Source: Isoetes taiwanensis
Taxonomy: Eukaryota; Streptophyta; Lycopodiopsida; Isoetales; Isoetaceae
NCBI GenBank assembly: GCA_021234155.1
Contig: JAJEKV010000037.1
Span: 1,792,171 to 1,856,170, forward strand
Direction: 5' to 3'
DNA length: 64,000 bases
A program made the translations under genes and the position numbers. The notes beneath the pieces are model-generated. The model was given only the letters and a program-made list of their open reading frames with translations. It was not told the origin of the DNA and did not search any database. Below, piece after piece: positions 2,223-28,173 of the stretch. Positions within the stretch are counted from its first letter, which is position 1. Each line of letters starts with the position of its first letter.

Positions 2223-2249
2223 GTATTTATACGGTATACGTATAAATAC
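2223..2249. promoter_or_regulatory. AT palindrome at LTR start
   Basis: Arms GTATTTATAC / GTATAAATAC around a GGTATAC-like centre, 13 bp from the LTR edge and conserved in both LTRs (also 26595-26621). TATAAATA resembles a TATA box, but a position at the very start of U3 would be unusual for the core promoter. A protein-binding palindrome is as likely. Function is inferred only. Confidence 0.3.
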
Positions 2250-2482
2250 ACTAACACGTCACGCAGTAGAGATACGCCACCATGGGGTACTTTAGCCTAG
2301 GGGGTTGACCTTGAAGGGATTAATTTAGCTATGCTAAATTAATTATTAAACGATAATTACCTATAATTAAGGAAATAATGCCTAAATTAGTTTAATTAGG
2401 ATAATGGATTAATTAGGAAGGCGCCACTTGGCCAAACTCGATTGGCCAGCATGGGGATGCTAATTTGGGGCATCAACATTGA

Positions 2483-2487
2483 ACCCT
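2483..2487. repeat. Target site duplication ACCCT of inner retrotransposon
   Basis: ACCCT at 2483-2487 is repeated at 11789-11793, flanking the inner element exactly. Removing one copy plus the element restores the sequence seen uninterrupted in the outer 3' LTR near 26850-26870. This proves that the inner element inserted into a pre-existing LTR. Confidence 0.95.
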
Positions 2488-3971: not shown

Positions 3972-3985
3972 TTCTTATCCCCTTT
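3972..3985 (-). other. Polypurine tract of inner element
   Basis: On the - strand this reads AAAGGGGATAAGAA and directly abuts the 3' LTR, the expected site and composition of the plus-strand primer. Just internal to it, 4007-4024 repeats the last ~18 bp of the LTR edge (AATAAAATTCACATCACA). Confidence 0.85.
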
Positions 3986-4042
3986 AAGATTCGACGTCCT
4001 CGTCGAATAAAATTCACATCACATTGTTACAAATATACTCCT

Positions 4043-7000: not shown

Positions 7001-7258
7001 ATGCTTCCTAATTGCCCTCTTGATTTGCTTGCGACTAATGGGCTTAGGAGTAAAATACTGCTTATTCAATCCTTCCAATGTATATAATTCTTGATGTTCC
7101 TTAGATTTTACTCTCACAACTCTTTCATGACAATCTACTATAGCATGCACCTCACTAAGCCATTCCATGCCTATAATCATATCATATGAGCCTAGCTGAA
7201 GCACATGGAAATTTGCAATTGTAGGCATGCCTTGCACTTTCAATTTTAATGCATGCAC
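4043..7258 (-). CDS. pol: Inner pol: end of protease, RT, RNase H, integrase, chromodomain-like end
   Basis: Open frame of 1071 residues; the GTG at 7258 is only the frame edge, not a real start. Residues 1-45 are the end of the protease (GMEWL). RT spans about 130-325 with [13 protein letters not shown] and the catalytic FFDDILIYS (D298, D299). RNase H spans about 435-560 with D445, E482, D507 and D550. Integrase has the HHCC zinc finger (H630, H637, C667, C670) and the catalytic D700, D761, E797, a D,D-35-E spacing. The GPF/Y-like segment [10 protein letters not shown] is at about 930. A CHD-type chromodomain-like stretch ([18 protein letters not shown]) is at about 1010-1030. It copies element RNA to DNA and inserts it; the chromodomain-like end typically reads histone methylation. 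It is intact as read and joins the protease frame only through a frameshift. Confidence 0.95.
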
Positions 7259-7431
7259 ATATTCATTAGTAGCTTTTCTCTTACATCAGCCATTTTCACC
7301 ATTCTTAAGGCTTGTTGGTTAGTATTCAATCCAAACAACTTGACAAGCCTTGGTGAAATAAAATTGTGAGTGGCTCCCATATCAATCAAAATACTAAAAG
7401 GAACTTCATTGATTTTACCTTCAACTTGCAC
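7246..7431 (-). pseudogene. Inner retroviral-type aspartic protease, N-terminal part
   Basis: Encodes the catalytic loop FSILIDMGATHNFIS. The usual D-S/T-G triad reads D-M-G here, a change at the residue next to the catalytic aspartate. The frame is offset by one base from gag upstream (near 7431) and again from pol downstream (within about 7258-7275, where a stop follows NMCMH). The two shifts separate gag, protease and pol. I read them as single-base indels rather than programmed frameshifts, since no convincing slippery site plus structure is visible. A polishing error in the assembly is an alternative. Confidence 0.75.
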
Positions 7432-8865
7432 TGTGTTGTTCCTTGATCAACGGCTGCACAAACTTGCATATCTTCCTCTAAATCCATGAGGGTTGCCTGA
7501 TGAGCTCTCATTGCCCCCACATTCTGAGATCCTTGAACTTTGGCATTTGAGTTATTCTTCTTAGGACAAAAACGTGCCCTATGCCCCTTTTGCTTACAGT
7601 AAAAGCATAAATTCTCCTTCATGCACTTATCATATTCAACTTTCTTCTTTTCTTCATCCATCTGTGACATTGCATTCAAAGGCAACTTAGGAATATTATG
7701 AGAAGTTTGATGGACCTGAGAGTTTGATTCATCTCTATAATTCCTCTGGAAATTTCCTCTTTGTTGCTCCCTACGGTTGGCATTCTTCTCCTCCTTAAGG
7801 ATGCTCTCGAAATATCGAGCCTTGTGCTCCGCTTCTTCCAAGGTAAGTTGATCACATCCAACTAATTTTTTAAGCTCCATATCTAGTCCTTGCACAAAGC
7901 GACTAGCTAGTTCCTGCAGTTAAAAACTAATTATTACTTTTATAATACCTAATTTAGAGAATGATGCTTGCTTAACAGAATGATTCTTGCCTTTGGATCT
8001 AACTTTGGACAATGTCGTTCCAAAGTAGAGAATTCTTGTATATAGTTATCCAAGGATTGCCCTTTCTGTTTACATTCCATGAATTTGTTCATCTGTATAA
8101 TATGAAAGGAAGGTGGACAATATTTCGACATGAAGAGTTCCTTGAAAGTCTCCCAAGCGACTTCTTCATCAGTCACCTTATGTGCTGCCTTATGACGATT
8201 CCACCACATCAAGGCGTTCCCTGTCAGGCTCAATGCCACCACTCCCACTTTTTCTTCCTTAGGAACTTGTCTTACAACAAAATAATTTTCAGCCTTCTGA
8301 ATCCAAGCTTCTGTCTTAACTCCATCCTTATCAAAACCATCAAATAGTTCCAACTTATACTTCTTGGCAATCTCCTTTAAAGCAGATGACTTCTTTTGTG
8401 CTTGAGAGCTTTCCTTCCCTTGGCTCATAGGCGTAGATGATGCCGTATCCTCTTCTTTGTTCCTTTTCCTCCTCCTAGAGTGCGAGCTTAAGGGCATCGA
8501 AGATCCTCGTTGGTGGCTTCTCCCACTAGGTGCTCTCAATACTGGTGGACCTCCCACATCTCCCTGTTTAGTCAATCAGGATTAAGAAAATTTCCCCTTA
8601 AACAGCTTGCAAATTAATGATCTCTGACCTGTCTTTGCCCTTGTCGCAGTTTTTCGATTTGCATTTGCAAGTTTTGCATTTGTTCTGCGCTAGCTCGATT
8701 CAGATCAGTAAGTTGGTTCTCTATGCTGGTTTGAAAGCTTAAGAAAGCTTGCAACATAGAAGATTCTAAAGTTTTCCTCATGCTGTCAAAATTATCCTCC
8801 TCCCGATTGGCATTATTAGCAGCATGATGAGGACTGGATAGATGTTCCCTAGGAAGTGGTTCCAT
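7432..8865 (-). pseudogene. gag: Inner gag (capsid / zinc-knuckle), split into three frames
   Basis: Read on the - strand from ATG 8865. Part 1 (8629-8865) starts MEPLPREH and is helical. Part 2 (7949-8563) holds the retrotransposon gag region with AWIQKAENYF and ALMWWNRHK. Part 3 (to about 7432) starts LASRFVQGLDME and contains the zinc knuckle CFYCKQKGHRARFC. Parts 1 and 2 are separated by 65 nt that look like a perfect intron (GT at 8628-8627, AG at 8565-8564) and keep the frame when removed. Parts 2 and 3 are separated by about 40-90 nt ending in TTTTTAACTGCAG, but I find no donor that restores the frame. It packages element RNA into virus-like particles. Confidence 0.8.
8564..8628 (-). 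other. Probable spliceosomal intron inside inner gag
   Basis: On the - strand the upstream exon ends AGACAG, the gap starts GTCAGAG and ends CTGATTGACTAAACAG, containing a branch-point-like CTGAT and a stop codon (TAA) in the gag frame. The 237 nt from ATG 8865 to 8629 are exactly 79 codons, and removing the 65 nt joins RQGQRQ to GDVGGP in one frame. At 65 nt it is near the minimum for plant introns. Confidence 0.55.
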
Positions 8866-8959
8866 CTGGAGAATACATAAAAGTTTGTACTCAATGAACT
8901 CTCTAAATGTCTTGAAATGACATCAAACTATCTGAACTTTCAAAACAGATCTCTATCCT

Positions 8960-8996
<37 letters not shown>

Positions 8997-10290
8997 CCCA
9001 TGATTCTTATAGAGGCCATGACATAATCACCACATTCCTTACTTATTATCTATACCCATTCATTCAATTTATTATCTTACATCCATTAAGCAACCATATC
9101 ATGAACTAGGTTAATTGGCTAATATCACACAGAATTTAGACATTAACAGTTAGCAAACCACCAGCTGCCCACTCCGGTCCTACACTTGTAAGACCTGCCT
9201 CTAATCCTTGAGTTTCCTCAAGTTGGAAGGGGAAGCAGCATGTTTCTTAACATAGCCATATGCTACCCACTGGTGGATTGACCCCCCACAATCATAACTT
9301 CGCTACTTCGGGTTCCACGGGTTCCACGGGTTCCACATATGTGTCCAGCGTGTCCTGCGTGTCCAGCGTTTCGCTCTGCTATAATTGTGTCAGGTCCACA
9401 TAGGCATATCCTATGTGTTTTCAGTGCTTACTGCTAATTGCAATCAACCTATGTTAATTAAACATCAATTACCTTTTTTTTTTTATTATTATTATTATAT
9501 ATTTTACACTCCAAAATTGCAAGTTCATGTACATACCAACATTAATCCCAAATTAATCACAAAGGAAAAATCGAGATTATGTCATGGTCCTCCTTCATGG
9601 CTGGGGAACAATTGTGTAGGAATAGTTTAATAATGATTATTTTGTGGCGTATACACACCCTGACATAAGACAAGCTATAGCCTTCCGTGACCATTACTCA
9701 TTAATCACGCTGACACTGTCTATTTCATCACCTCTAACCCCCTTTTTTTTTTTTTTTTTTTTTTTCTATGTGACAAGGGGATTCTAGGTTAAAAGTTCCA
9801 ATTTTCCAGTTACATTGTGAGTTACTCGAGAGGTGACAAAATACTAACCGTCAAAAGGAAATGGGTAAAGACCCTAACACAAAGCAGAAACAACTCTATG
9901 TGAGGTGGTAAACAATCTAGAACTACCCATTTTTTTATTTTACATCATGATACTTTGTCCCATGAGTCATTGATGCAATCTTACCTCCAATGTAACTCCA
10001 ATTATGGGATAGGAAATAACAACTATACTCCATTGGTTTACACCTACCCATACCATACAATAAGATATTCCAACCATGTTTAAATATGTTACCAGTTTTG
10101 TATATCTCTATCACAGGTTCTATGGTAAAAAAAAGGTGCTACAATTTGGAAAAATAAATGGCCATTATACCTTGGACATAATATGCTTGCATTGAAAATT
10201 AACTTAGGTTGGGTTATCCTCTGAAGTTATTGTAAATAAGGAGTACTTGAATTCAGTTCCCTAAACAATATCTAGGTTCAACCCGTGACT
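8866..10290 (-). other. Untranslated leader of inner element
   Basis: About 1.4 kb between PBS and gag start, with no coding signal. It contains long T runs on the + strand (about 8960-8992 and 9744-9765), a T/ATT microsatellite near 9475-9500, and a short imperfect repeat of GGTTCCACGG / GTGTCC(A/T)GCGT units at 9308-9370. Confidence 0.7.
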
Positions 10291-10303
10291 GGCTCTGATA
10301 CCA
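10291..10303 (-). other. Primer binding site (tRNA-iMet), inner element
   Basis: The - strand reads TGGTATCAGAGCC, complementary to the 3' end of plant initiator methionine tRNA. It starts 4 nt inside the 5' LTR (10308-11788). This is the usual primer of plant chromoviruses. Confidence 0.95.
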
Positions 10304-10307
10304 ATTT

Positions 10308-11788
10308 TGTGACGGTCCTTCGCCCGACACCGATTAATACTTAGATACATAACACAAATACCTCAGGATCCACGGGTGCAGAACCTGCATATCGACCCAC
10401 AACCCAAAAATAGCATGTTGCGGCATCCCTGAGCTACTGGTCTCTAGCTCATGAGACCACCTTCATCTAGGTGCAACTTGACATGACCAATGTCAAGTCC
10501 TCACTAGCGAGCTTCATCAGTGCCCACTCGCTAGTGTCGAGTGACTAGCACTCGTGGCCTCAGTTTCTGCTTAGTCTCCCCGGAGAGCTGTGGGCAGACC
10601 AAGGTGCAACTAGGCTAGCAACATGAGCGATTTCCATATTTTTCTATGGATATGCTAACTCGAGAAATATTGTTTATGAACGTGCATCCAACTTGATTTG
10701 GTAAGGTCCATTATTAAACGACCTTGTTATTGCCTAAGGTTACCTGTAGAATGGATGTTGTTACCCATCATCCAGATATTCGTCATTCCTATATTTATAA
10801 TATGCTCGAACGAAGAACTAAGCAACAGAGTTGGCTTAGAGAACGGCTCATACTCACCGTATTTTTATGCCTAATTTGCCTTGTGAATCTAGGAATGTTT
10901 TTCTATAGTCCACACTTGAATGACAATTTAAGTAGCTTAGCTTAAGAAAAATAACATTATGTTAAAAACTATGATTGGTTGATAACGGGACCTGTTCTCC
11001 CAATTTAGATCGGATGAAGAACCCCGGCGGATCCTATCTCGATTAGACCAAAGGTCATTCCGACTGTGGAAGGAGACCGGATCCTCCGGTTCCTTGGCCG
11101 ATTTCCCCTATCCCCGGTTTATAGTCATTATTTGCGGTGAGAAGCACGATTCAAAGGTTTGACAATAGATTAGTTAGGGTTTCTGCAAAGCCGGAAGTCC
11201 TGGCTGATCTAGCAGCTATTTACTCTTACATCTAACTTATTGCTTTCTTAGTACTATATCTTTTGTGTTTCCACCTCCTTTGGCCATGTTCAAATGCAAG
11301 TAGCGGCGGATATCTTGGCCTGCACCGTGAAAACGGTTCCAGAGGGTTTTTACCAGATCTGTATATGATTGAATATGGTCTGGGCTATAAGGAAATCTAT
11401 CCTACAATCGAAATGCATGCAAAAACAGTTCGGATTTGCCTGGCCGATCTCCTTTTGAACTCATTTACGCATCAACAGCATTGAATAAATCGCCCCAGAG
11501 AAAAGCTGGGATTTCCATTGATATTCCTTTTAGTTTTATGATGAGATTTGTTCTTTCATTCCATTTACTAATACTTAGAGCATTTAGAAGATTACGATCT
11601 AACCTGTGCACGCTTCTTTGAACTTGTTACCTAAATTCTCAACACCTTCCTCCTCGATCCTCCCCCTTTTGATCTGATTCTAACTACTTGGAATATTTCT
11701 TTGCCACGTCTTCTCCATGCCACATCATCTTCTTATTATTTAATAATATACCTTAGAGCCATACAGCCATAATAAAATTCACATCACA
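10308..11788 (-). repeat. Inner 5' LTR (right side of the window copy)
   Basis: 1481 bp, TGTGACGG to ATCACA on the + strand, paired with 2488-3971. It carries the transcription start region for the - strand element, but I cannot place a promoter by eye. Reading frames at 11263-11484 and 11436-11621 mirror those in the other LTR and are not genes. Confidence 0.95.
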
Positions 11789-11793
11789 ACCCT

Positions 11794-13102
11794 TGTCCCA
11801 TTTGACCCCAAAATCGAGCCAGGAGGAGGAGCTGTGAGCGCCCAAGCTGTTGCTGAACACGCCCAAGCTGTTGCTGACACCCAGATTGCTGAAGTATGGA
11901 AGTGCCCCATGATAACAGCTCTAGCAGAAACTCGGGTTAGTGGGTAGTCTAGCTTGAGCTTCTAGGATGGTGCCTAAGTTAGTCTTCTCTGGTTATCTTT
12001 GTTAGGATTAACCCTTCTTTGGTATTTAGGATTACATTTCAATTATGGATTATGCTTTGTTAAGTAGGGATGGATGAATCTATGAAAGTATCTCTATTAG
12101 CTTCCATAAAGCAGGAATTAGAGAGGGGTAGAGACCTCTGTGCCTTATACTCTTAGTATACTCCTAGTAGCTCCTTTAATTCCCAATAGTTGCGGCCTGT
12201 GCACAAGAGACCACCGAGTCATGGATGCTATGGGGTTGCTTAGCACCAGAGAAGGGACGCAGTGGTGAAGTGGGGGTGGGGTCTTGCACGAACATACAAG
12301 GCTCCTGGGACTCCTACAGTGGGCTGGGCCTGATAGCCGGTCACGTAGAGGGCCGGGTATGGGTCCGACACTCCCTAGGTGCAGAGTTGTGACCCGTATG
12401 GGGCACCCTGTACTTTGTGTAGATTTAGGGGAGTAAGTCGGGTACGGATGCGGGGGTCGCTGATGCGGCACGTATTCTCTAGCTAACCCATGGAACCGCT
12501 GTGATCCTGGAAGGGGACGCTTCCCCGACCTGCCTCATCGGACAGGTCTTCATGAAACCTGGAGTAGGCTCGAAGGGTGATACCTTGAGTCTGCGTCTCC
12601 GGAAGGCTATAGTGATGCCATAGCATGATTCGACTCATCTGCAAAGTGTGCACAGGAGGGGCAGATGGAGTGGACAACCCTAGCCGATGTTCTATGCCAG
12701 CCGACGCCATGCCAAGATTCGGTCTGCTGATCTCTTGAGACCTAGTCGTCAGTTGATCCTCACTGGAGTCTGAGCCGGGGTAGAACCATGGGTTTGGGGT
12801 GTTTTCTCTAGTATTAAATGTACCTTCTCTGTTATTATCAGTTGGATGGATGTGCCACCCTTCGTGGTGGTATTTATGATGTGATTATGATGTATGCTGA
12901 CCTTGTATTCACGCTTCCGCGACATAGGAGCCCCATTGAAGGCGTGGGCCGAATGACCCCTCTGTGTCCTTCACTTGAGCATCTTTCCATAGATGGCCCG
13001 AGTTAGACGGAGGGCCCTGCTCATGGCGAGATGGTTGCCATGGGAGGGGGAAGTCCCCGTATGTATACGCCCGAGCGTCGTATATGTTCTGGGAGCGTCA
13101 CA
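11794..13102 (+). repeat. Outer 5' LTR, second part
   Basis: Continues the LTR after the nested insertion and ends GAGCGTCACA, just before the PBS. It aligns with 26860-28168. The two LTR copies differ by many substitutions and short indels, so the outer element is clearly older than the inner one. A copy-specific rearrangement is visible at 11830-11885, where the phrase CCCAAGCTGTTGCTGA is duplicated compared with 26890-26945. Confidence 0.93.
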
Positions 13103-13103: not shown

Positions 13104-13116
13104 TGGTATCAGAGCC
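13104..13116 (+). other. Primer binding site (tRNA-iMet), outer element
   Basis: TGGTATCAGAGCC starts one base after the LTR end at 13102. It is the same initiator-methionine tRNA primer as in the inner element. Confidence 0.95.
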
Positions 13117-14330: not shown

Positions 14331-14885
14331 ATGGCCACCACCAAGAGTACCATAGACCCCACTGGCCTCATCATAGCCCAGATTTATGCCTTAATCGCAC
14401 AGCATATGGCTACCAACAGTGCCTTGATTGATATACTTCTGGATGAGCTGGTACTCCGATTTGCTGACGACGCTAGGATACCCTATCCAATATATCATTA
14501 CTCGGAGCAGTTTTTGATTAAGTTGAATCTCCGACAGCTTCCTTATACCATGGCCGAGCAACCTGATTTGGTCATGATGATTAAATTTTATCCTCCTGAA
14601 TAGGAACACTCTGCGGAGAAGGCCATAAGAACGGAGGCCGACCGTATCCGGAACTTGGCCAGGGAGGATGACCGCAGGGAGGTGGAACGAGCTGATACGG
14701 CGGCTCGGGGTCGTGAGTATAGGTACTTAGGAGATGGAGTCGCCGTCATTGATGGCAAGGCAATCAAGCTTCCCCCATTTGAGTGGCATGAAGCTTCCCA
14801 GAGCTTCATGTGGGGGAGAGATTCCTGACATCAGTCTGGATTATTTGACGACGGTCCAGATTGATATGAGCCAGCGACCCAATCA
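14331..14885 (+). pseudogene. Accessory ORF1, N-terminal half (broken)
   Basis: ATG 14331 starts MATTKSTIDPTG and runs through a helical, family-less segment of about 90 residues to an in-frame TAG at 14601-14603. The same frame then continues with a charged stretch (ARGREYRYLGDG) and a hydrophobic one (VIDGKAIKLPPFEWHEA) to a G-run at 14812-14816, where an extra base shifts the frame. The shifted frame continues as DISLDYLTTVQIDMSQR up to the Mutator-like insertion. The 3' half resumes right after that insertion (18011 on) with [14 protein letters not shown] in a compatible frame, so both halves were once one protein of about 420 residues ending in a histone H3 fold. No function is recognised for this half. 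Confidence 0.7.
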
Positions 14886-15002
14886 TTAGGGTTTTTTTGA
14901 GATTAAAAAAGGGCCTTCAAAACATGCCAACTAAGCCAAATGAAGATAAATGAACTACCAATCAGAAATCAGAGCCTGACGGGTCCAGTCAGCAAAACTG
15001 TC

Positions 15003-15316
15003 ATAACTAACTCACTGGATCACATTTTCTAGCATAACTATTGATAGAAAAGTCCAAATGAGCTTTCGTTTAGTGCAATAGATAGATCTCATTGAGATCT
15101 TTTCAATCTTAGGTGCTTTGCACATATTTTAACCACTTATAATTGTCAAAACTCCAAAAAATATGATTTTTACTATTTTTTACTATCCTACGGGAGTAAA
15201 AGATATGCAAACCACCTAAGGTTGGAAAGATCTCAATGAGATCTATCTATTGCACCAAACAAGAGCTCATTTGGACTTTTCTATCAACAATTATGCTAGT
15301 GATCCAGTGAGTTAGT
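15003..15316. mobile_element. Foldback MITE nested in the Mutator-like element
   Basis: Arms of about 110 bp. The left arm starts ACTAACTCACTGGATCAC (about 15007) and the right arm ends with its reverse complement (about 15296-15313). Further paired blocks are GATAGAAAAGTCCAAATGAGC, GCAATAGATAGATCTCATTGAGATC and CACCTAAG-like ends. The spacer is about 70 bp. No coding capacity. Confidence 0.8.
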
Positions 15317-15320
15317 TCAG

Positions 15321-15643
15321 CGAGAGCCCTCATAATTGTATTTTGGACGTACGAAATCAACACCATATAGTATTCCGGTTGAAATCTTATAGTATTTTGC
15401 GAATCTTATTATACAGTATAGCAAATCTTGTACTTGCATACCCCACAAACGAGGAATTTTACGTACGGTGTAGATTATGGAATAAGGGGCGAATATGCCA
15501 ATCCGACAGCTCTCGATGCCCGGGGTCACCCCCCGTGTGAATATGCACCAAACCAAAGGGGGTTTAAGGGGGATTTTAATTTAAATGTGTTGGATCCAAT
15601 GGTTATATTTATTAATGTCAATGGTAGTTATGTGTTGGTTATT
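15321..15643. mobile_element. One-ended copy of the foldback family seen at 30651 and 52751
   Basis: Contains the core (in reverse orientation relative to 52857-53068) plus one terminal arm (CACCAAACCAAAGGGGG to TGTGTTGGTTATT). The other arm is missing where the 15003-15316 MITE abuts. It is followed at 15662-15674 by the hairpin GGCCCTTCGGGCC, as in the other copies; another such hairpin is at 15799-15811. Confidence 0.75.
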
Positions 15644-16453
15644 ATACTAAAAAAATTTTTTGGCCCTTCGGGCCATAAAAAAAAAGCAGACGTGAGAATA
15701 TAAAAGACATTTAAAACATGTAGCAATATGTGTTATGTGTTTATGTTAATAATGTTAATGATAGCTATGTGTTGGTTGTTATATCGAAAAAAAATTTCGG
15801 CCCTTCGGGCCTAAAATTTCTGTTCTCGTTATTCTAATCAAACTAGAACGCAAGCAGTTTGCATAAAAAATGGAAAGCAGAGGAGTCAATTAATATACAT
15901 AAGCAACTTTTTCATTAAATGTACACCGCCAGCCAAAGGTTTAGTAGCTTCTTATGCTGAGGAAAATAAGAAATGAGGAAGAGCTACATAGTTACTTCCT
16001 CCAAAAAAAAAATGCAAATAACTACCAAATGGATACAATAGTGTCATGAATGGAGCAAGAAGTCAGAAGAGTTTTGGAGTGCATGGTAATCATTAATTAA
16101 AAAGGGAGAAGATACACAATAGAGTCCAAGTATTTAAATGCATTGCCAACCCAAATAACTACATTGTATGAACAATAACCATGTCCACTGCACTCAACGT
16201 GATTAAATTAATGTTTCCACCTAATCGTAACAACTTACATTATGTTGTTCAACATCGAAAAAATCCTTTGTACTCTTGCATTGATGTCTATATGATTCTG
16301 TACACCAGAAAAACGCCATGCAAATAGGGAGAAGAACGCCATGCAAATAGGGAGAAGGAAAATATATTGAGCTTTTACGTAAGAATGAAACAATATAAAA
16401 TCTCTGCTGCAAGCTCACTTTAAATAAAAATTGGGATCGACGTCACTTGTTAC

Positions 16454-16693
16454 TTTTTCATTTGCTTTGGCGTGGATGATCTTTTTAATTTCGGAGTTAA
16501 CCAAATAATCAAAAGAATCAACGTGTTGCTTAACAAGCCCCCTGACCTGCAAGGAAAACCATAATGACGTGCCTCACATGGAAACAATTTCGTTTCAGTG
16601 AGGAAATAACATACCTTTAGAAACGCTGGAAGCAGCTGAAATTTATCTACTGAAGTTTTAATAGATGCTTCTAAGGGTTTCTTGTTCAATGAC
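16454..16693 (-). pseudogene. NRPC2: Captured exons of RNA polymerase III second-largest subunit
   Basis: Two exons on the - strand. Exon A (16615-16693) encodes SLNKKPLEASIKTSVDKF then QLLPAFLK, and ends in donor GTATGT. Exon B (16454-16546, 93 nt) follows acceptor TTGCAG and encodes [20 protein letters not shown] then [11 protein letters not shown], ending at donor GTAAC. This matches the N-terminal region of NRPC2/RPC2, where DKFQL.P.FLK precedes [14 protein letters not shown] and KKI..AN. Only about 57 of roughly 1150 residues are present, so it cannot encode a working subunit. It keeps an intron, so it was captured from genomic DNA, not mRNA. The second-largest subunits of Pol I or II are less likely from the wording of the motif. 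Confidence 0.8.
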
Positions 16694-16939
16694 CTGCATG
16701 AAATCAGCATTACTACACTGGTTTACGCAGGACAAGATTCTGTATAGTGAATCGAAAACTTGACTTTATCTGAATGTCTTCCAATAGAGATGGTAACCCG
16801 AGAAGGTGATAACTTACATGTTCGATGAGCCTGGAGCAGAACGAACCTGGAGCAGATCGGCACAATACAGGTTGTCTCCTTTCACTTCCACCAAATTCTA
16901 CTCAGACCTGAGATGTGTGCATAGGATTATTGTGTGCTT

Positions 16940-17720
16940 ACAGTTCGGTGGGACCTTGAAGGGTTTTCACAAGCTCTTCAATCGCCTTTGCCATTGCATG
17001 CATGGCCTCTGCATCATCCTCCATCAAAAAACAGTCTTTGATCAAAAAACAGTCTTTGTTTTTTTGTGACTTGGGGTTCCTTCTATATCTGTGTCAACAC
17101 AAAAAAGGGTCACTACTTACTGTGTTGGTCAGTTCCGCTCATAATCCAAAAAATGCCTCTTTTCATCCATTTCGACCAAACAGAATCATCCTTTACTTTA
17201 ATCTACCAGGACAAGGAAAAAGGAGAGGATCTTTGACCTGATTCGATACGGATGGCATCTGTCGCACCAGTTCTTAGCTCTTGCCCCAAATTTGGATCAA
17301 TGCCCAAATTCTCCAAATCAACCTCACAATCTAAAATAGAACTTGGACTGATTACAGGCCTGCTGCTTAGCCAAGAATCAAGCTCCTTGAATATATCCTT
17401 ATCGAAACAAGAGGGCAGCTTCTTTTCCCTTCTATCTTCCGGTTGCATTGGCCAAAAGGGCTCAACCCCAGGGAGGCGTTGCCAATCTCTAATTCGTTTA
17501 TAATCAGAAACAAGGCTGAACCATCTCTTTTTTACAGGCAACGGGGTCTCTATCTACTTTACGAGATCTCATAGACTCTGAGATAGATTTCCATTTATGG
17601 GTACTTTAGGCGCAGAGACAGAAGAAGAGGAAACGCCCGTCATGCTGGCGGATGGCATAGATGTGGGAGGTATGGCCACCTCCACGAACCCTAAAGTAAC
17701 CTAAAATAACCCTAAAGTGA
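16940..17720 (-). pseudogene. Captured exons of an unrecognised host gene
   Basis: The - strand reads a serine-rich start (about 17700-17590) with two stops, then an open stretch 17541-17240 with KKRWFSLVSDYKRIRDWQRL, GVEPFWPMQPEDRREKKLPS and LDSWLSSRPVISPSSILD. It ends near a donor-like GTCAAAG. A later segment (about 17030-16945) encodes MEDDAEAMHAMAKAIEELVK, TLQGPTEL, before a donor-like GTAAGC. The composition is that of a real plant protein, but I do not recognise it. It lies on the same strand and upstream of the NRPC2 exons, so the element carries a chimera of two gene pieces. Confidence 0.5.
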
Positions 17721-18012
17721 ATAAAAAGAAATAAAAAGGAATAAAAATAAAAAGGGGTAAACCATTGGGGATATGGGATTTAGACCATAAAAATGCAGAG
17801 TGCACTCTAGATATACTGATTAGTATGCTTCGCATAATACGCCCATGAAATCATATGAAAACCATGCCAAAAAGCGTATAAAATCACAAAAAAACCCCCT
17901 GTTATAATGCTACATATTGCTGACTGGATTACCAATTCTGTTTTCTGATTGGTAGCATATAGCTTAGTCAGCAGTTCTTAGAAGGCCCTTTTATGATCTC
18001 AAAAAATCCCTA

Positions 18013-18723
18013 ATGCGATACCACGCTGAACTCCTTCGCCGCATTGTAGAACGACAATACGCTGAGGTTGAAGCCGACCTCAATGGAGCCCGTGAGTTCC
18101 GGGAGGAACAGGAAAGACTCCAACGGGAACGAGAGGAGAAGGCCCGACAGGAACAGCAGGACCAGCAGGGTAATGGGGGACTAGAAACCGAGCAGGGGCC
18201 AAACCAGGCGGACAGACCACCCATTAAACACCGGAGGAAATTCGTAGCCCATAAGTCCGGTAGCCAGTACAAGGAGAAGTTGAAGGTTGTCGGAGCTATT
18301 GGGAAGAACACGAGTTCCCGCCGGAGGCAGGAGCGGGTGGATGCTTCCCGGCCCCATCCTGTCGTTGCGGGCAAGACGGTACCACCGCAAAGAGGCCCGA
18401 CTCCCAAGCCTGCTCCACCGAAGAAGCCCCACCGGTTCAGGCCCGGTACCGTGGCCTTACGGGAGATCCGTAAGTTCCAGAAGACCACGGAACTTCTGAT
18501 ACGGAAGCTTCCTTTTCAAAGGTTGGTTCGGGAGATAGCCCAAGAATTCAAAACCGACCTCCGCTTCCAGACTTTTGCCATACTAGCACTTCAAGAGGCT
18601 GCAGAAGCCTATTTGGTGGCACTTTTTGGTGATGCAAATCTTTGCGCTATCCACGCAAAGAGAGTCACTATAGTGCCGAAGGATTTGGCCCTGGCCCGCA
18701 GGATTCGGGGAGAGCATCCTTAG
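18013..18723 (+). CDS. Accessory ORF1, C-terminal half: coiled coil plus histone H3 fold
   Basis: Open 236-codon frame after the Mutator-like insertion. Residues 1-50 are a charged coiled-coil-like stretch ([20 protein letters not shown]), and 55-135 are basic and proline-rich ([22 protein letters not shown]). Residues 139-236 (18427-18720) match the core of histone H3 from [16 protein letters not shown] to [10 protein letters not shown], with about 15 differences in 98 residues by eye from plant H3. The helices and loops are the canonical length; the longer loop 1 of CENH3 is absent. Positions equal to H3 C110, H113, R116 and D123 ([13 protein letters not shown]) are kept, as are the K36/K37-like lysines, but the normal tail with K4, K9 and K27 is replaced. 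It probably enters nucleosome-like or H3-H4 complexes; this is inference. It lies in sense between LTR and gag, so it is part of the element. Confidence 0.9.
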
Positions 18724-18980: not shown

Positions 18981-20381
18981 ATGGCCGCCATCAATTTGCT
19001 TGCATGGTACTAGGATGGGGAGCACTGGGATCCACAGGTTCCCTTTGACCTTTTACAGCCTTTCCTACGCCAGCGCCTCGACCTCATCTCTAATATGCAA
19101 CGGCACCCAGATTATGCCGGATTCCTACAGTTTTACACAGAGGAGATGCTCCCCCTGTGTATTCCTTTTGGGGAACCTCCCCAGTTGTACCTAGAACGGG
19201 ATGTAGTCCGAGAAATGCTTGGGGATGACACCCACGCATATGATGTGCTCAAAGGCAAACTTAAATGGGGTAAACAACCACCAGTTGTTCAGCACCAGGG
19301 GCGACAATATCTTGAAGTTGCCTTTGCTCTAGCCATCCTCATGGATCAGTACGTTGAGGATGATACCTTGTCAGCCGAGAAAGGCAAGCTTCCCGAGTCT
19401 TCAAATGAGGAAGAGGACGAACACATCAGCATGGACGACTTTGTACGTTGGAAGCAGTTGGCAGAGGAGATGCCACCGCGTCGGGAGCAAGCAGCACGCT
19501 TGTCCGGGTTGGATGCCCTTCCAGTAGTGTATCATCAAGGACAAGAGTATCTTCTCTTGGATGATATCATCTGGACTTATCACATAGTGGCCGGATTCAA
19601 GCGCCGACGCAAGGATCACGTGCTCTATGAATTGGCAGAATACTGTATGGATGATTTTATAGATTTCACCCCTATTGATCTTCCACAAGAGGTACACCAG
19701 CTACTCCAATTTCGTCAGGAAACCATAGAGCCAGCTGCTACTCTGCTACGGCTTAGGGATTTGATGCTGCAGGATCCACCAATTCAGCCTCCTCCGGATG
19801 CTTTTACAGCTATGGGACCTCATGTCCCAAATATTAATATGGTTGAAGTTCCCTCCGGTTCGAACGAGGAGGCAGAGGATCTATACAATAACCCTGCTCA
19901 TTTGAAGGAAGAACAGGAGGAACTCAAGGAAGAGGAAGTCCCTATGGACCTAGATAAGGAGATCGCCACGTCGGAGACTTTGCAGGGGAAGGCGTTAGGG
20001 AATCACCTCATCCGCTTCTTCCTATCAGCGTTTTGGCAGGGGCAAGTCCTTTTTATAGCCCGGGAGTTAGGGCCAGAGGCCGAGGCTTCATGGTGGAACC
20101 TCCGTGCTCTTTCCACATTGGCAGGGCACAAGAAGCTTCCCTATCGCACGCTTACTTACGTACTCGTCCGACGGAATCTTGCCCTCACTGCATTGGGGCA
20201 CGATATTGCACCATGGATGAGTATGAAGCTTCTTACGGCGGCCCCATTGGCTGCCACCTATCCGCCAGAGGTTGCCTCCATTGCAGCTGCCACAATAGAC
20301 CCAGGGGTGACTTTGTTACGTCATCGACCGCCACCGCCACCTCCTACGCCTATGGACCGGGATGCCGGCATTAGTTCGTAG
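18981..20381 (+). CDS. Accessory ORF2, unknown protein
   Basis: The ATG at 18981 (MAAINLLAWY) is followed by an in-frame TAG at 19011-19013, then an open frame to 20381; from the next ATG (19095) it is 428 residues. The block PVVQHQGRQYL (residues 63-73) recurs as PVVYHQGQEYL (143-153), each followed by an aliphatic helix, so the N-terminal half looks like a two-fold repeat. The middle is acidic (EEQEELKEEEVPMDLDKE), then comes a helical segment (FFLSAFWQGQVLFIARELG) and a proline-rich end. No enzyme motif or known domain is recognised. It sits in sense between the H3 ORF and gag, behind an acceptor-like CTCTCTTTCAG, which suggests expression from a spliced element transcript. One stop makes this copy damaged, or the start is at 19095. 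Confidence 0.65.
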
Positions 20382-20576: not shown

Positions 20577-21038
20577 GACGATGAAATTGAGGAAAATGAA
20601 GAACAAATACCCGAGGAATTACGAGAGGAAGATCATACACCTCTAGACCAAGACTATGGTCAAGAATATGTGGAGTGGCACCCAGAGGATGTTCAGTACG
20701 TGGCAGAGGAGCCTATTGAGGAAGGAGAACCCTACGACACAATCAAGAGCTTCGAAATTGTCAACATTCTCCGTGAACGCGCTTTCGAGCATCTGGAACA
20801 TACTCTCCGACGGACCTGGAATTACTGGCAGATGACGAAACATGAGGCTTTTATTGATGCAAATAACTATCTATGGCAGATTTTCTACGCGTTGAGGGAT
20901 CTCTTCAAGTTACTCATCATCAGCCCCACGTTAGATTATCAGTTGGTCATTATCCAGGCATGGGCTCGCTACAAGCTAGTTAGGGCAGTACGGGAGAGTA
21001 TTCGTTACTCTATCCTGTACCCTTTCGCAGAGCCCTAG
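20577..21038 (+). CDS. Accessory ORF3, unknown helical protein exon
   Basis: An open frame begins right at a strong acceptor (ACTTACCGTCTTGCAG, ending 20577). It reads DDEIEENEEQIPEELREE, acidic, then EYVEWHPEDVQYVAEEPIEE, and a helical basic half (ILRERAFEHLEHTLRRTWNY, WARYKLVRAVRESIRYS) to the TAG at 21036-21038. No in-frame ATG lies near the 5' end, so it probably gets its start from an upstream exon by splicing; the acidic stretch resembles the end of ORF2 in style. About 150 residues. No domain recognised. Confidence 0.5.
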   Translation, partial: DDEIEENEEQIPEELREEDHTPLDQDYGQEYVEWHPEDVQYVAEEPIEEGEPYDTIKSFEIVNILRERAFEHLEHTLRRTWNYWQMTKHEAFIDANNYLWQIFYALRDLFKLLIISPTLDYQLVIIQAWARYKLVRAVRESIRYSILYPFAEP

Positions 21039-21269: not shown

Positions 21270-24200
21270 ATGGTTAATATAGACGGTGCACGCAACGCCT
21301 CATGGCAGACACCTTCAGATGCTAGCAGGCTAACACCTGAGCAAGAACTCCTGTTGATCAAGCGGCAGTTAGTGGAGCTGCAGGCTTATGTGTTGAATGC
21401 CAACCCTCCACAGTATATGCAAGAGAACGGACCGGAGTTACCTCCGTTACCGCCAAGTCCACCACCACAGCAGCCACCTGCACCGGAACCAGGCCCTGTA
21501 CCTGCAGAAAGGAGGCACCGTTCTAAACGCCGTCGAAGCTCGTCTACAGATAGTGCGACCTCCTCGCAGTCAGCCACTTCTGTCTCTTCAGAATCATCGA
21601 TATCGTCTGGTGACCATGCAAAGGCCCGGGATAAGGAGTACCGTAAGACGGTTGATACCGCCATAACTAGTATATGGAAAAACAGGAAACTGGCCCAGTT
21701 TGATGGGAAATCTAGAGGCGGCCTGAATGCAGAGTCCTGGTTGGACGAGATGAAGGAGTTTGGAAAATCCTATGGCATGACGGAGAAAGATACAGGAAAA
21801 GTTGCCACCACAAACCTTACAGGAGCCGCTCGTATTTGGTGGAAGGGCTATGCTAGAGCCAAGCATCTAGACAGAAGCAGATGCAAGTTTTAAAGGTTTG
21901 CCAAAGCTTTTAAGTCGCATTATGTGCCCCGTGCGCACAAATGCCAACATATTCAAACTTTTTACAGGTTGGAGCAGAAAGGCATGTCAGTTCAGGCCTA
22001 CACAGATGAATTCATGCGCTTGAGGCTGTATGTGCCAGGAATGAATGAGAAGAGGGCGGTGGAGGGCTATATTGAAGGGTTGGCCCCATCAATTAAACGA
22101 ATGGTTAAGGCCATAGACCCGAAGTCAGTTGCAGAAGCTGAGGCTAAGGCATTAAGCCTTGAAGAGGATACGCCACGAAACCAGTACCAGCGTCCTGCAT
22201 CTTATTTCCAGCCGTGCCCGTACACACCCTACAAGCCCCGTTCACCAAGTTCGGGGCCCTCTCAGCAGAACTCTTACGGCCGCCAGGAAAAGAAAGTCAC
22301 CTTCAGCATGCCCGACAAACCGAACAATGTCGGTAAGGAAGTTCGGAACCTCTTACAGTCTATTCCCAAAGAGGTCCGAGAGCAGCTCCGCAGAGACAAG
22401 GCATGTTACAGGTGTATGCGGCCTGGGCACTTCATGCAGAATTGCCCTTATGTCACACAGACTGCCCAGCTGGCCATGGCCGACCTCGATTGGCACGATC
22501 TCGAGTCTACACCACCTGTCGAGGAGGAAGCTCCCGAGTATATTCACGGTGCATCCCATATCCTTGCAGCCATAGTAACCGGCAACGCTGAAAGTCAGCC
22601 TGCCGTTATTTCCACCGTAGGTCAAGTAGACAGTAAGCCTTCCATAATTCTTATGGATACGGGAAGTACACATAATTTTGCTTCTCCTAGAATGGCCCAG
22701 GTATTGCAGCTTGAGACTTTGAGGTCCCGACCAAAACCTGTCACCTTAGCCAGTGGTAAAATCAGACATACTCATGGCCGTCGCATTAATCTTAAAATGC
22801 AACTGCCAGGTGCACCAGTTGCATTAGGTGCCGAGTTAATGGATATTGGCAAATATGATCTGATTGTTGGTATGGAATTCTTGGCATCTGCAAAAGCCAA
22901 TATAGACTGCGAAAAATGGGAGGTTACCTTCAACGCAGCTAATGGAGCCCGCATAACTATAAAAGGTGATTCCTTAAACCCCATTATGCAATCTATGTCC
23001 ATCAGGCAGTTAAATAAGGCTATACGCAAGGATAAGCTACTTTGCGTTATCAGACTTGCATCCATCGAGTCAGATGCTAAACAGAAGCAAGTAATTGATG
23101 CATTACCAGAGAGCATTGCTAATCTCCTCAGGGAATTTACCGATCTCTTTCCAGACGAGATCCAGAAACTTCCTCCATTCAGAGGGGTAGAATGTAAGAT
23201 AGATTTGGAACCAGGTACAAAGCCTACCAGTAAGGCCCCGTACCGTATGAGTCCCCCTGAGTTGGCAGAGCTTAAGAAGCAACTTCAGGAGTTACTAAAC
23301 CTAGGCTTCATCCGGCCTAGTGTTTCACCTTTTGGCGCTCCTATCCTTTTTGTTAAGAAGAAGGATGGCTCCCTCAAGATGTGTATTGATTATCGGCAGC
23401 TCAACAAGCATACGATCAAGAATCGTTATGCTTTGCCGAGAGCAGACGATCTTATGAACCAGTTGGCCAAGCACTTCTCAAAGATTGACTTACGCTCCGG
23501 ATATCACCAAATAAGAATTAAAGAGGAGGATATCCATAAGTCTGCTTTTCGCACTAGATATGGGCATTATGAGTTTACTGTTATGCCTTTTGGATTAACT
23601 AATGCCCCTGCAACTTTTATGCGACTGATGAATGATGTCTTCCGACAATACTTGGATGATTTTGTTATTTTCTTTGACGACATTCTCATCTATAGTAAGA
23701 CTCTGGAGGAGCATGAGAAACATCTTCGGTTGACCCTACAAAAGCTAAGACGTCACCAGCTCTTTGCCAAGTTCTCTAAGTGCAAGTTTGCCACTCCGAA
23801 GGTGGATTATTTGGGGCATGTCATTTCAGCAGAGGGAATTGCTACAGATCCAGCAAAGATAGAGGCAGTGAAGGATTGGCCCATTCCAGGTAATGTCTCA
23901 GAGGTCCGAAGTTTCTTGGGATTGGCAGGGTATTACCGGAAATTTGTTAAGGATTTTGCAAAGATTGCAGCACCTCTTACTGATCTTACAAAGCATGAGA
24001 AAGTGAAGGATTGGATTGAGCATTGGAAAGCAAAGGTCCAGGGGAGTTTTCAGAAGCTTAAGGATGCTTTAACGTCAGCACTAGTCCTCACATTGCCGGA
24101 CCCCGAAAAGGATAAACTAGTAGCAACGGATGCTAGTAAGATTGCTATCGGTGGAGTCCTAATGCAGGAGGAGAGAGTTATTGCCTATGACTCAAAGAAA

Positions 24201-25932
24201 ATGAACGAGACTGAGCAACCTTCTTGGTAGAAGATTCCAATGGATACGGATCATCAGAGTCTCCGTTATCTAACCACCCAGCCGAATCTCAACCTTCGTC
24301 AGAGGAGATGGATGGAATTTCTGGAGGAGTACGATTTTGAGATTATGTATAAGCCTGGGAAACACAATGTGGTTGCGGATGCGTTGTCACGCCATCCCTT
24401 GGTAACCCGAACCCATTGTAATGCTTCCACACTCACTAGTGACTTCGGGAAGCAGATAGAGCAGACATTGGCCACAGATCCAGAATTCCGTGACGTGTAG
24501 GATAGTTTGACTAAGGAGGCACGCACAGATAAAGAACGTAACGCTTCCCGTTCGTATAAGAAAGAGGGCAATTTGTTATATTACAAAGATAAGTTGTGTG
24601 TGCCTGAGACTTCAGGAGTACGTAAGCTAATTCTCCATGACACACACAACAGCCCTATAGCTGGACATGCAGGTTTCATGAAAACCTATTTTAAGATCCG
24701 CTCCAGTTATTTTTGGCCAAGTATGAAGAAGGACATTGCCAGGTATATTAAGCAGTGTCAGGTCTGCCAACAAACCAAGGCTGAGCAATTAAGGATTCCA
24801 AAAGAGTTGCAACCTCTGGATGTACCCAATGCTAAATGGGAAGTAATAACCATGGATTTCATTGTGGGCCTTCCACGTACTCTCCGTGGATATGATGCAT
24901 TAATGGTAATGGTCGACAAATTGTAAAAAATGGCTCATTTCTTGCCATGTCGTACCACGGATACAGCCTTCGACACTGCTTTGCTGTTTACAAAGGAAAT
25001 TTTCAGATTGCATGGAATGCCACGTGTTATAGTATCCGACAGGGATCCCAAGTTTGTAAGTGCATTCTGGAAAGATTTCTTTGCCACCATCCAGACCAAG
25101 CTTGCTATGAGTACAACATATCATCCTCAGACGGATGGTCAAACAGAACGTACTAATCGCATTATAGAGGATATGCTGCGAAGTTATGTGTGGAGTAAGC
25201 AATCACAATGGGCTGACTATATTTATTTGGCCGAGTTTGCCTATAACAGCATGAAACAGGAATCTTCTAGAATGTCTCCCTTCATGATAAATTATGGTTA
25301 TCAATGTCTTACTCCCGACACATGGCATAATCCTGTTTCTAAGGTGGAGGTTTCTCAACAACTACTCTTGGAAATGCAAGATTTGGTTGAGGAAGTTCGT
25401 GGCTACTTATTGGCTGCACGCAGCCGTCAGAAGAGTGTCGCAGATAAGCACAGAACCCCACGAATTTTTCAGGTGGGCGAATCAGTTTGGCTCAAGATTA
25501 AGGTTAAACAAGCCAAGCTTAAGATTGGTAACTTGCAAGAAGCTGGCACCCAGATGGGCTGGGCCGTTCAAGATCATTGAACGTGTTGGAGAACAGGCAT
25601 ACCGTTTGGATTTGCCACCCCGCTTGAAGATCCACAAGGTCTTTTACGTCAGTCTTCTGAAACAGCACACCCCAGATCCCGAGGAGATCTTGGATACCCC
25701 CACCCTTCTTGAAATGACAGAAGAGCATCTAGATATAGTGCCTGAAGCTCTTCTTGATCGAGCCTATAAGCAGACCAGAAGGAGTCAAATGCTGCAATAC
25801 TTGGTTAAGTGGAAACACTTGCCAGTTGAGGATGCTACGTGGGTGATGAAGATAGACCTTGAGAAGCACTATCCGGCGGGAATCTCAGGGCCGCACCATC
25901 AACGATGCTATCAACCCCGCACCCGGCGGTAA
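21270..25932 (+). pseudogene. gag-pol: Outer gag-pol polyprotein, disabled
   Basis: ATG 21270 (MVNIDGARN) opens one long frame for gag and pol, now broken by stops at 21891, 24228, 24498 and 24924 and a one-base shift near 25530-25545. Gag has ESWLDEMKEF and AARIWWKGYA, and the zinc knuckle [14 protein letters not shown] (22405-22446). Protease is [13 protein letters not shown] (about 22650), triad intact. RT has [13 protein letters not shown] and [10 protein letters not shown] (about 23670). RNase H lacks roughly 33 residues around 24228, including its second acidic residue region, but keeps TDHQSLRY. Integrase has the zinc finger (GHAGFMKTYF...CQVCQ), [16 protein letters not shown] and TDGQTERTN. 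The end QMLQYLVKWKHLPVEDATWV is chromodomain-like. Apart from the 25.5-kb shift the frame is preserved, so decay is mostly by substitution. Confidence 0.93.
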
Positions 25933-26581: not shown

Positions 26582-28168
26582 TGTGACGTTCCAAGTATTT
26601 ATACGGTATATGTATAAATACACTGACACGTCACGCAGTAGAGATACGCCACCATGGGGTACTTTAGCCTAGGGGGTTGACCTAGAAGGGATTAATTTAG
26701 CTATGCTAATTTAATTATTAAAAGATAATTACCTATAATTAAGGAAATAATACCTAAATTAGTTTAATTAGGATAATGGATTAATTAGGAAGGCGCCACT
26801 TGGCCAAACTCGATTGGCCAGCATGGGGATGCTAATTTGGGGCATCAACATTGAACCCTTGTCCCATTTGACCCCAAAATCGAGCCAGGAGGAGGAGGAG
26901 GCGGAGCCAAAGTCGTTCTTGAACACGCCCAAGCTGTTGCTGAACACCCAGGTTGCTGAAGTATGGAAGTGCCCCATGATAACGGCTCTAGCAGAAACTC
27001 GGGTTAGTGGGTAGTCTAGCTTGAGCTTCTAGGATGGTGCCTAAGTTAGTCTTCTCTGGTTATCTTTGTTAGGATTAACCCTTCTTTGGTATTGAGGATT
27101 ACATTTCAATTATGGATTATGCTTTATTAAGTAGGGATGGATGAATCTATGAAAGTATCTCTGTTAGCTTCCGTAAAGCAGGGATTAGAGGGGGGTAGAG
27201 ACCTCTGTGCCTTATACTCTTAGTATACTCCTAGTACCTCCTTTAATTCCCAATAGTTGCGGCCTGTGCACAAGAGACCACCGAGTCATGGATGTTATGG
27301 GGTTGCTTAGCACCAGAGAAGGGACGCAGTGGTGAAGTGGGGGTGGGGTCTTGCACGAACATACAAGGCTCACGGGACTCCTACGATGGGGCTGGGCGAG
27401 ATGGCCACGAGGGTCGGGTATGGGTCCGGCACTCCACGGTGCGAGGTGTGACCCGTATGGGGCACCCCCTGCACTTTGTGTAGATTTAGGGGAGTAAGTC
27501 GGGTGCGGATCGCGAAGGGTCGCCCGATCGCGGCACGTATTCTCTAGCTCACCCATGGAACCGCCGTGATCCCGGAAGGGGCGCTTCCCCTCGACCTGCC
27601 TCATCGGGACAAAGTCTTCATGAAACCCGGGTAGGCTCGAAGGGTGATACCTTGAGTCTCGTCTCCCGAAGGCTATAGTGATGCCATAGCATGATTCGAC
27701 TCATCCGAAAAGTGTGCACAGGAGGGGCGGATGGAGTGGACAACCCTAGCCGATGTTCTATGCCAGCCAACGCCATGCCAAGATTCGGTCTGCTGATCGC
27801 TTGAGACCTAGCCGTCAGTCGATCCTCACTGGAGTTTGAGCCGGGGTAGAACCATGGGTCTGGGGTGTTTTCTCTAGTATTAAATGTATCTTCTCTGTTA
27901 TTATCCGTTGGATGGATGTGCCACCCTTCGTGGTGGTATTTATGATGTGATTATGCTGTATGCTGACCTTGTATTCACGCTTCCGCGACATAGGAGCCCC
28001 ATTGAAGGCGTGGCCCGAATGACCCCTCTGTGTCCTTCACTTGAGCATCTTTCCATAGATGGCCCGAGTTAGACGGAGGGCCCTGCTCATGGCGAGCTGG
28101 TTGCCATGGAAGGGGAAAGTCCCCGTATGTATACGCCCGAGCGTCGTATATGTTCTGGGAGCGTCACA
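26582..28168 (+). repeat. Outer 3' LTR
   Basis: 1587 bp, TGTGACG to CGTCACA, uninterrupted. It serves as the reference for the empty site of the inner element. The frames 26768-26977 (-), 27212-27604 (-) and 27884-28072 (+) have counterparts in the 5' LTR and are chance frames. It is followed by the CTGGT duplication. Confidence 0.95.
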
Positions 28169-28173
28169 CTGGT

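What the first reader, a model, noticed from the sequence alone, without database searches (positions are those of the whole stretch)
18013..18723. A retrotransposon ORF that ends in a histone H3 fold
Seen: an uninterrupted frame in sense orientation between PBS and gag of a chromovirus ends with 98 residues that follow histone H3 from [16 protein letters not shown] to the end (RRIRGEHP), about 15 differences by my eye, no gaps. The surrounding gag-pol has several stops but this domain has none. Known: plant LTR elements can carry extra ORFs, but I know of no LTR element described as encoding a core histone. Inference: the element may have domesticated an H3 gene to act on chromatin, packaging or integration.
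Basis: partly seen in the sequence, partly recalled or inferred. Interest (0 to 1): 0.95.

Follow-up and report, generated by a model that had tools for sequence, protein, structure and literature searches.

The report
Jumping gene family carrying histone H3
A large family of plant jumping genes carries its own copy of the core of histone H3, one of the proteins that package DNA, and natural selection has kept that copy almost unchanged, which suggests the element uses it to act on its host's chromosomes.

Summary
Confirmed, and stronger than first read. Window 18013-18723 ends in an ungapped histone H3 core (Pfam Histone 4.9e-40). It is the C-terminal part of a longer accessory protein (ORF1, 421 aa in intact copies) of a Ty3/gypsy element with a chromodomain; in this copy a 3.1-kb DNA-transposon-like insert splits ORF1.

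It is no single-copy accident. Two capped searches of the source genome list 238 distinct H3-carrying places besides 15 host H3 genes. At least 31 of 76 reverse-transcriptase copies have an H3 upstream on the same strand.

Across 30 copies H3 dN stays near 0.025 while dS rises from 0.12 to 0.63 (dN/dS about 0.2 to 0.04). Between two lineages the rest of ORF1 is 35-39% identical, the H3 core 81-86%. Tail motifs around K4/K9/K27 are absent in all copies read; most recalled DNA-, H3- and chaperone-contact residues are kept. The chaperone site reads FAIL/HAIL (host SAVL/TAVL/HAVL), like xAIL in some viral H3s.

Best mechanism (inferred): ORF1p pairs with host H4 and enters or binds chromatin as a tail-less H3. 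Assembly size matches Isoetes taiwanensis. My searches of an open-access library found no report of a histone-encoding retroelement.

The parts
2205..2209 (+). 5' target-site duplication CTGGT
   Evidence: CTGGT on both sides of the element
2210..2490 (+). first part of the split 5' LTR (TGTGACG...)
   Evidence: 281 sites aligned to the 3' LTR start, K2P 0.022
2487..11803 (-). nested, younger Ty3/gypsy element inside the 5' LTR (its LTRs 2487-3985 and 10307-11803, 98% identical); not part of the H3 element
   Evidence: no H3 match there in a tblastn of the window
11788..13102 (+). rest of the 5' LTR, ends ...CGTCACA
   Evidence: 1304 sites, K2P 0.065
13104..13115 (+). primer binding site TGGTATCAGAGC (initiator tRNA-Met type; the type is recalled)
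14331..14888 (+). ORF1, N-terminal part (begins MATTKSTIDP); in this copy a stop at 14601 and a frameshift near 14800-14815
   Evidence: found directly before H3 in 29 of 29 other copies
14884..18015 (.). DNA-transposon-like insert with 38-bp terminal inverted repeats (89%) that splits ORF1 in this copy; not part of the family
18013..18420 (+). ORF1, middle part: predicted long helix (P0001 residues 2-53) and basic Lys/Arg-rich linker
18421..18720 (+). ORF1, histone H3 core (H3 positions 36-135), stop at 18721-18723
19095..20381 (+). ORF2 (428 aa; its frame extends up to an ATG at 18981 with a stop between); no known domain
   Evidence: dN/dS 0.135 for codons 19095-19934
20586..21038 (+). ORF3 (150 aa); no known domain
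21270..25932 (+). gag-PR-RT-RH-INT-chromodomain with several stops, an RNase H gap and a frameshift (start approximate)
   Evidence: Chromo E 2.6e-08
26582..28168 (+). 3' LTR
28169..28173 (+). 3' target-site duplication CTGGT

Best explanation
A Ty3/gypsy chromodomain element of this plant lineage took up a host H3 gene, probably once, long ago and of the H3.3 type. It fused the H3 core to the C-terminus of an accessory protein (ORF1) encoded between the PBS and gag. Shown by sequence: the fusion, its high copy number, its linkage to the element, and strong purifying selection on the H3 core. Inferred: the H3 core still folds with host H4 and is handled by host H3-H4 chaperones, so that ORF1p (predicted coiled-coil helix, basic linker, tail-less H3) is built into or anchored on nucleosomes. 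Because the part that would carry K4, K9 and K27 is replaced, such nucleosomes could not receive those marks. My preferred role is therefore to keep the element's own new copies from being silenced, or to tether its complex to chromatin.
For: H3 core, ungapped. 238 distinct non-host places. In 29 other copies compared: ORF1N directly before H3 in 29, leader in 28, LTR end in 22; ORF2 after H3 in 29 of 30. H3 upstream of RT in 27 of 76 by lists and 31 of 76 with fetched stretches. dN/dS 0.078, dN flat at 0.021-0.027 while dS rises. Lineages A-B: H3 81-86% identical, rest of ORF1 35-39%. Host-element synonymous sites saturated (pS 0.92), pN only 0.11. E77 and L90 in all 15 host genes; lineage C keeps H87 as in the one host H3.3-type gene. 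Contact residues (positions recalled): R42, T45, R49, K64, F84, V117, T118, C110, D123, L126 invariant in 43 lineage-A copies; R63, R69, R72, R83, K115, R116, H113, R129, I130 in at least 41 of 43. Tail motifs ARKS/ARTKQ/KAPRK absent in 48 of 48 rows read (46 distinct copies). L077 shows no ORF2 or ORF3 but has ORF1-H3 in a 453-aa open frame directly before gag. The site FAIL/HAIL parallels SAIL/TAIL of viral H3s, which the review PMC9145170 (section 9) thinks likely to form nucleosomes with host histones.
Against: No expression, protein or binding data. H3-H4 pairing was not modelled: the one single-sequence model of P0001 has mean pLDDT 57.6, with the H3 helices at low confidence. The loci used for dN/dS were the best protein matches, which favours low dN, although the other ORF1 parts of the same copies have 2.7 and 4.2 times the H3 dN. 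R40 is kept in 39 of 43 copies only, and position 86, on my recalled DNA-contact list, is T in 43 of 43. F87, E105G and T107A are unusual and could impair assembly. RT copies without a listed or seen H3 are 45 of 76 (the lists are capped); in 6 of 12 fetched stretches no H3 was seen. Loss of the tail does not prove an anti-silencing role.
Confidence: 0.55

Rival explanations
1. Packaging or nucleocapsid aid: the H3 core with its basic linker compacts the element's RNA or cDNA inside the particle or in the nucleus; nucleosome entry is not its role.
For: Basic linker and predicted long helix; giant-virus histones form nucleosome-like particles (abstract in the listing); most recalled DNA-contact residues kept.
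Against: Packing would not require the H3-H3 and ASF1 surfaces (C110, H113, D123, L126, R129, I130) to stay nearly invariant; no histone domain was found in ORF2 or ORF3 as a partner.
Confidence: 0.15
2. Nuclear import or integration tether: the H3 core borrows host H3-H4 import and assembly chaperones to bring the integration complex to chromatin, without making lasting nucleosomes.
For: ASF1-contact residues (recalled) kept; the chaperone site 86-90 is a cluster of changes; gag-pol of the same element carries a chromodomain.
Against: The chromodomain already offers a chromatin tether; nothing tested here links ORF1p to integrase.
Confidence: 0.22
3. Ordinary gene-fragment pick-up: the H3 piece is a passenger spread by the element and has no function.
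For: Transposons that captured host genes are known (PMC6431247, passage); individual copies decay (stops in 4 of 30 H3 parts).
Against: dN/dS 0.04-0.08 over deep divergences, H3 more constrained than ORF1N, ORF1mid and the ORF2 part, and present in three lineages and in a copy without ORF2/ORF3.
Confidence: 0.03
4. The H3 ORFs are a host H3-variant gene family into which elements inserted, not a part of the element.
For: A run of A follows the H3 stop in the window (18837-18853), as after a retrocopy.
Against: Same order ORF1N-H3-ORF2 in 28 of 29 other copies. In the 16 RT-H3 pairs H3 is upstream on the same strand, 0 on the wrong side, 0.05 pairs expected by chance; one search adds 11 such pairs and 1 opposite-strand neighbour.
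Confidence: 0.02

Closest known systems
Single viral H3 histones (Manila clam xenomavirus, Dishui Lake phycodnavirus, Sylvanvirus; review PMC9145170, section 9 read whole)
   Same: One H3 without partners, 73-87% identical to host H3 in the fold, some with longer or divergent N-terminal tails, chaperone site SAIL or TAIL.
   Different: Those are DNA viruses or metagenome viral contigs and judged relatively recent, sporadic gains; here it is an LTR retrotransposon, in at least 238 listed places, an old fusion to a long accessory protein without the usual H3 tail motifs.
Bracovirus H4 of Cotesia wasps (PMC9145170, passages)
   Same: A histone recruited from a cellular H4 gene, with an extended tail, carried by a provirus-like genome and incorporated into host nucleosomes.
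   Different: H4, not H3; it serves a wasp against its insect host.
Phalaenopsis Gypsy elements with an AlkB m6A demethylase ORF (PMC9289625, abstract, outline, section 12 and passages)
   Same: A plant Ty3/gypsy lineage with an added ORF related to a host gene and kept.
   Different: An RNA demethylase. Section 12 reports 15 extra domains from 121 angiosperm genomes; a histone is not among those named in that text (figures and supplements not seen).
Ogre elements with extra ORFs (PMC6431247, passages; a position between PBS and gag is recalled)
   Same: Large plant Ty3/gypsy elements with 1-2 extra ORFs beside gag-pol.
   Different: Those ORFs are called of unknown function there, and the word histone does not occur in that paper's main text.
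Host histone H3.1/H3.3 (15 genes found)
   Same: 83-88% identical core for the copies compared; E77 and L90 in common with most copies.
   Different: No tail motifs; T86 (A86 in lineage B), F87 (H87 in C), I89 and A107 in the copies read.

Membership tests
Histone H3 | Histone fold with H3 alpha-N helix, ungapped to H3 | tested here: met
   by sequence:
Histone H3 | N-terminal tail with K4/K9/K27 context | tested here: not met
   0 of 48 rows (46 distinct copies; L002 not caught by the motif) hold ARKS, ARTKQ or KAPRK in the 45 residues before the core
Histone H3 | Pairs with H4 in a nucleosome | not testable with these tools
   only residue conservation
Histone H3.3 type | H87 and L90 in plants (recalled); host gene L049 has T31, H87, L90 | tested here: inconclusive
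   L90 in all copies read; H87 only in lineage C, F87 in A and B
Centromeric H3 (CenH3) | Longer loop 1 than H3 (recalled) | tested here: not met
   no insertion against host H3 over 99 residues in the sequences
Ty3/gypsy chromovirus | Order PR-RT-RH-INT with a chromodomain after INT | tested here: met
Ty3/gypsy chromovirus | LTRs, 5-bp target-site duplication, tRNA PBS | tested here: met
Ty3/gypsy chromovirus | Placement in a named clade by RT tree | not tested
   no reference set of plant RT sequences was at hand
Single viral H3 histones | Carried by a virus and close to host H3 in the fold | tested here: not met
   the carrier is an LTR retrotransposon; the works-like comparison stands

The most novel reading that the evidence does not exclude
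A retrotransposon family that encodes its own histone: ORF1p is a selfish, tail-less H3 variant that host chaperones load with host H4 onto the element's own DNA, making chromatin that cannot be marked for silencing. It would be the first retroelement with a nucleosome subunit of its own.
Probability: 0.33. Interest if true: 0.97.

Novelty: new variant of a known kind. Interest (0 to 1): 0.9.

Why it matters
How transposons and host chromatin fight is usually studied through marks placed on host histones. A transposon that brings its own H3 core, without the markable tail, kept by selection over many copies, would let that contest be tested directly: whether tail-less H3 enters chromatin, where, and whether it shields copies. 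It also extends histone capture, so far described in DNA viruses, to a retroelement.

Tried and rejected
Non-autonomous H3-only elements: L033 showed an LTR soon after H3, but it is inverted, so this was dropped.

CenH3 mimic: no loop-1 insertion. The weak Pfam hits to CENP-S, CENP-T and CENP-Q are below the curated cut-offs.

Structure of ORF2: single-sequence model, pLDDT 36, not used. Structure of P0001: pLDDT 57.6, used only for the helix pattern; no fold search was run.

Relatives elsewhere: P0001 against 5.8 billion proteins gave 7981 matches; of the 120 listed, those I looked at by name or sequence are H3-containing host proteins. Its residues 1-126 gave no hit at E<=1, and ORF2 none at E<=0.001. 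Viral contigs: none; plasmids: none.

Left open: whether ORF1 exists without H3. The search with ORF1N alone did not complete. The lineage-B query did not complete. The six of 12 stretches upstream of RT without H3 are unexplained: L066 has ORF2 only, L067 the end of ORF2, ORF3 and gag, L072 LTR pieces, and L068, L070, L076 no match.

Rows dropped: L059 and L064 as duplicates of L014 and L005. L065 and L069 (H3 in two frames) were left out of the tree and counts; L073 was not used for them either. The overlap between the list and the 238 places was not fully computed.

Full report
The observation. The frame 18013-18723 is open and its last 100 residues align to histone H3 without gaps. I count 15 differences from canonical plant H3.1. 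Against the host-type H3 typed, tblastn finds 87% identity at 18430-18714 and no other good match in the window (next E 4.1).

The element. It runs from 2210 to 28168, flanked by CTGGT on both sides. Its LTRs begin TGTGACG and end CGTCACA. The 5' LTR is split by a younger Ty3/gypsy element on the other strand whose own LTRs are 98% identical. A PBS-like TGGTATCAGAGC stands at 13104. Then come ORF1, ORF2, ORF3, and gag-PR-RT-RH-INT with a chromodomain. LTR divergence is 0.022 over 281 sites and 0.065 over 1304 sites, so this copy is old, and its gag-pol is broken.

ORF1 is longer than first seen. The apparent start at 18013 lies at the edge of a 3.1-kb insert with 38-bp inverted ends. Upstream of the insert, from 14331, lies the first part of the ORF with a stop and a frameshift. 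In the 29 other copies compared the two parts are adjacent. L003 and L005 each hold an intact frame of 421 aa, with the histone match at residues 307-417.

The source genome. G000 has 1,658,258,908 bases in 1110 contigs. The Isoetes taiwanensis paper gives 1658.30 Mb, 204 scaffolds and 909 unplaced contigs, 1113 in all (PMC8566536, passages).

Copies. P0001 gave 12,353 first-look candidates; the 150 scored all match (E at most 2.3e-95). The canonical H3 query gave 9064 candidates, 150 scored: 15 genes at 96-98% identity, then 135 matches at 71-86%. Merging the two lists without the host genes gives 238 distinct places. I read 45 of these rows as sequence, 43 distinct copies; the rest are known by listing only. 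A lineage-C query listed 150 places of 8850 candidates, at least 8 of them already counted; the full overlap was not computed. The tool calls such counts lower bounds.

Linkage. Of the 30 copies, the window's own is cut by the insert. In the other 29, ORF1N stands directly before H3 in 29, the leader in 28 (not L014), and the LTR end within the 1.5-kb flank in 22; ORF2 follows H3 in 29 of all 30 (not L006). Of 76 RT places, 16 have a listed H3 upstream on the same strand within 10 kb, none on the wrong side, 0.05 expected. With the lineage-C list it is 27 of 76, with one opposite-strand neighbour. Of the top 15 RT places, 3 have a listed H3; stretches fetched upstream of the other 12 show H3 in 6 and not in 6. 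In all 31 of 76 have an H3 and 45 have none that I saw.

Selection. By Nei-Gojobori on 30 copies (435 pairs), pooled dN/dS is 0.160 for ORF1N, 0.254 for the middle, 0.078 for H3 (bootstrap 0.061-0.108) and 0.135 for the ORF2 part. In H3, dN is 0.021-0.027 in every dS class while dS rises from 0.12 to 0.63. The reading is that H3 changes are mostly neutral decay after insertion, while the lineage that transposes hardly changes. A first pass with another alignment gave the same picture (H3 0.096 pooled, 0.46 falling to 0.05). The copies are the best protein matches, which lowers dN; the contrast within one protein remains.

Origin. All 15 host genes carry E77 and L90. E77 stands in 35 of 43 lineage-A copies (Q in 8) and in L071, L074 and L075; L077 has D. 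The 15 host genes form one clade (SH-aLRT 97, quick tree without bootstrap) apart from the elements; the inner tree is poorly resolved. Host to lineage-A synonymous difference is saturated (pS 0.92) with pN 0.11. Lineage C keeps H87 as the host H3.3-type gene does, so I favour an H3.3 source; this is inference. I89 and A107 in each lineage read suggest a single capture.

Lineages. A is the window type; B is L065, L069, L071 and L077; C is L074 and L075. Between A and B the rest of ORF1 is 35-39% identical and H3 81-86%. Before RT that is 94-95% identical to the window's stand ORF1 pieces at 47-81% and ORF2 pieces at 37-50% identity in L065, L069, L071, L074 and L075 (the short ORF1N matches there are 36-56%), which points to exchange of modules between families. 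L077 has LTR end, leader, ORF1 (453 aa) and gag, with no match to ORF2 or ORF3.

What is kept and what is lost. In 43 lineage-A copies, 0 hold the host residue at 86, 87, 89, 102, 105, 107, 124 and 125, and 0 of 37 at 135; position 54 is F in 42. In B and C some of these are still host-like (I124 and Q125 in L071, Q125 in L074, L075 and L077). Contact residues for DNA, the H3-H3 bundle and ASF1 (positions recalled) are kept in all or nearly all lineage-A copies, except R40 (39 of 43) and position 86 (T in 43). None of 48 rows (46 distinct copies) holds ARKS, ARTKQ or KAPRK before the core. The chaperone site is FAIL in 42 of 43 lineage-A copies (FPIL in one) and in both B copies tested, and HAIL in both C copies; the host has SAVL (11), TAVL (3) and HAVL (1). 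The review of viral histones reports SAIL and TAIL in single viral H3s and thinks these likely to form nucleosomes with host histones (PMC9145170, section 9).

Mechanism. The kept surfaces are those an H3 needs to pair with H4, with itself and with chaperones, and the lost part is the one the host marks. That is why I favour entry into, or anchoring on, chromatin with an anti-silencing or tethering use. The first step (pairing) is moderately supported; the use is a guess.

Literature. Searches of an open-access library returned no paper; the rows shown for searches include none whose title or abstract start reports a retroelement that encodes a histone. Subscription papers are mostly not in that library. 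The I. taiwanensis and I. sinensis genome papers do not use the word histone in their main text. The orchid study is the nearest precedent I saw for a host-like domain kept by a plant Gypsy lineage.

Noticed in passing
window 14884-18015: 3.1-kb DNA-transposon-like insert with 38-bp inverted ends CATTAGGG...CCCTAATG; it holds a palindromic pair at 15029-15299. Family not assigned.
   Followed up: partly
window 19095-20381 and 20586-21038: ORF2 and ORF3 between the H3 ORF and gag: no Pfam domain; no protein relatives for ORF2 (ORF3 not searched). The ORF2 part tested is under purifying selection; both present in L031 and L034, no match in L077.
   Followed up: partly
L065, L069, L071, L074, L075: RT 94-95% identical to the window's while ORF1 pieces are 47-81% and ORF2 pieces 37-50% identical, which suggests exchange of the accessory ORFs between families.
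   Followed up: partly
window 18837-18853: Run of 17 A about 114 bp after the H3 stop, possibly a trace of a polyadenylated H3 mRNA; a plain A-run cannot be excluded.
   Followed up: no
window 18961-18975 and 20566-20577: Splice-acceptor-like stretches before ORF2 (CCTCCTCTCTTTCAG) and ORF3 (by eye), which could mean spliced messages for each ORF.
   Followed up: no
L031:2962-3096: A piece of LTR sequence lies inside the gag region of this copy.
   Followed up: no
window 13276-13843: About 570 bases of the 5' leader have no counterpart in the copies in which both sides align.
   Followed up: no
window 55993-56415 (-): PPR-repeat ORF (Pfam PPR_2 1e-44).
   Followed up: no
window 33684-34475 (+): Reverse-transcriptase remnant (RVT_1 6.8e-07, at the curated cut-off), non-LTR type by look only.
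   Followed up: no
window 43100-44200: Low-complexity Phe/Ser/Pro-rich stretch open in several frames.
   Followed up: no
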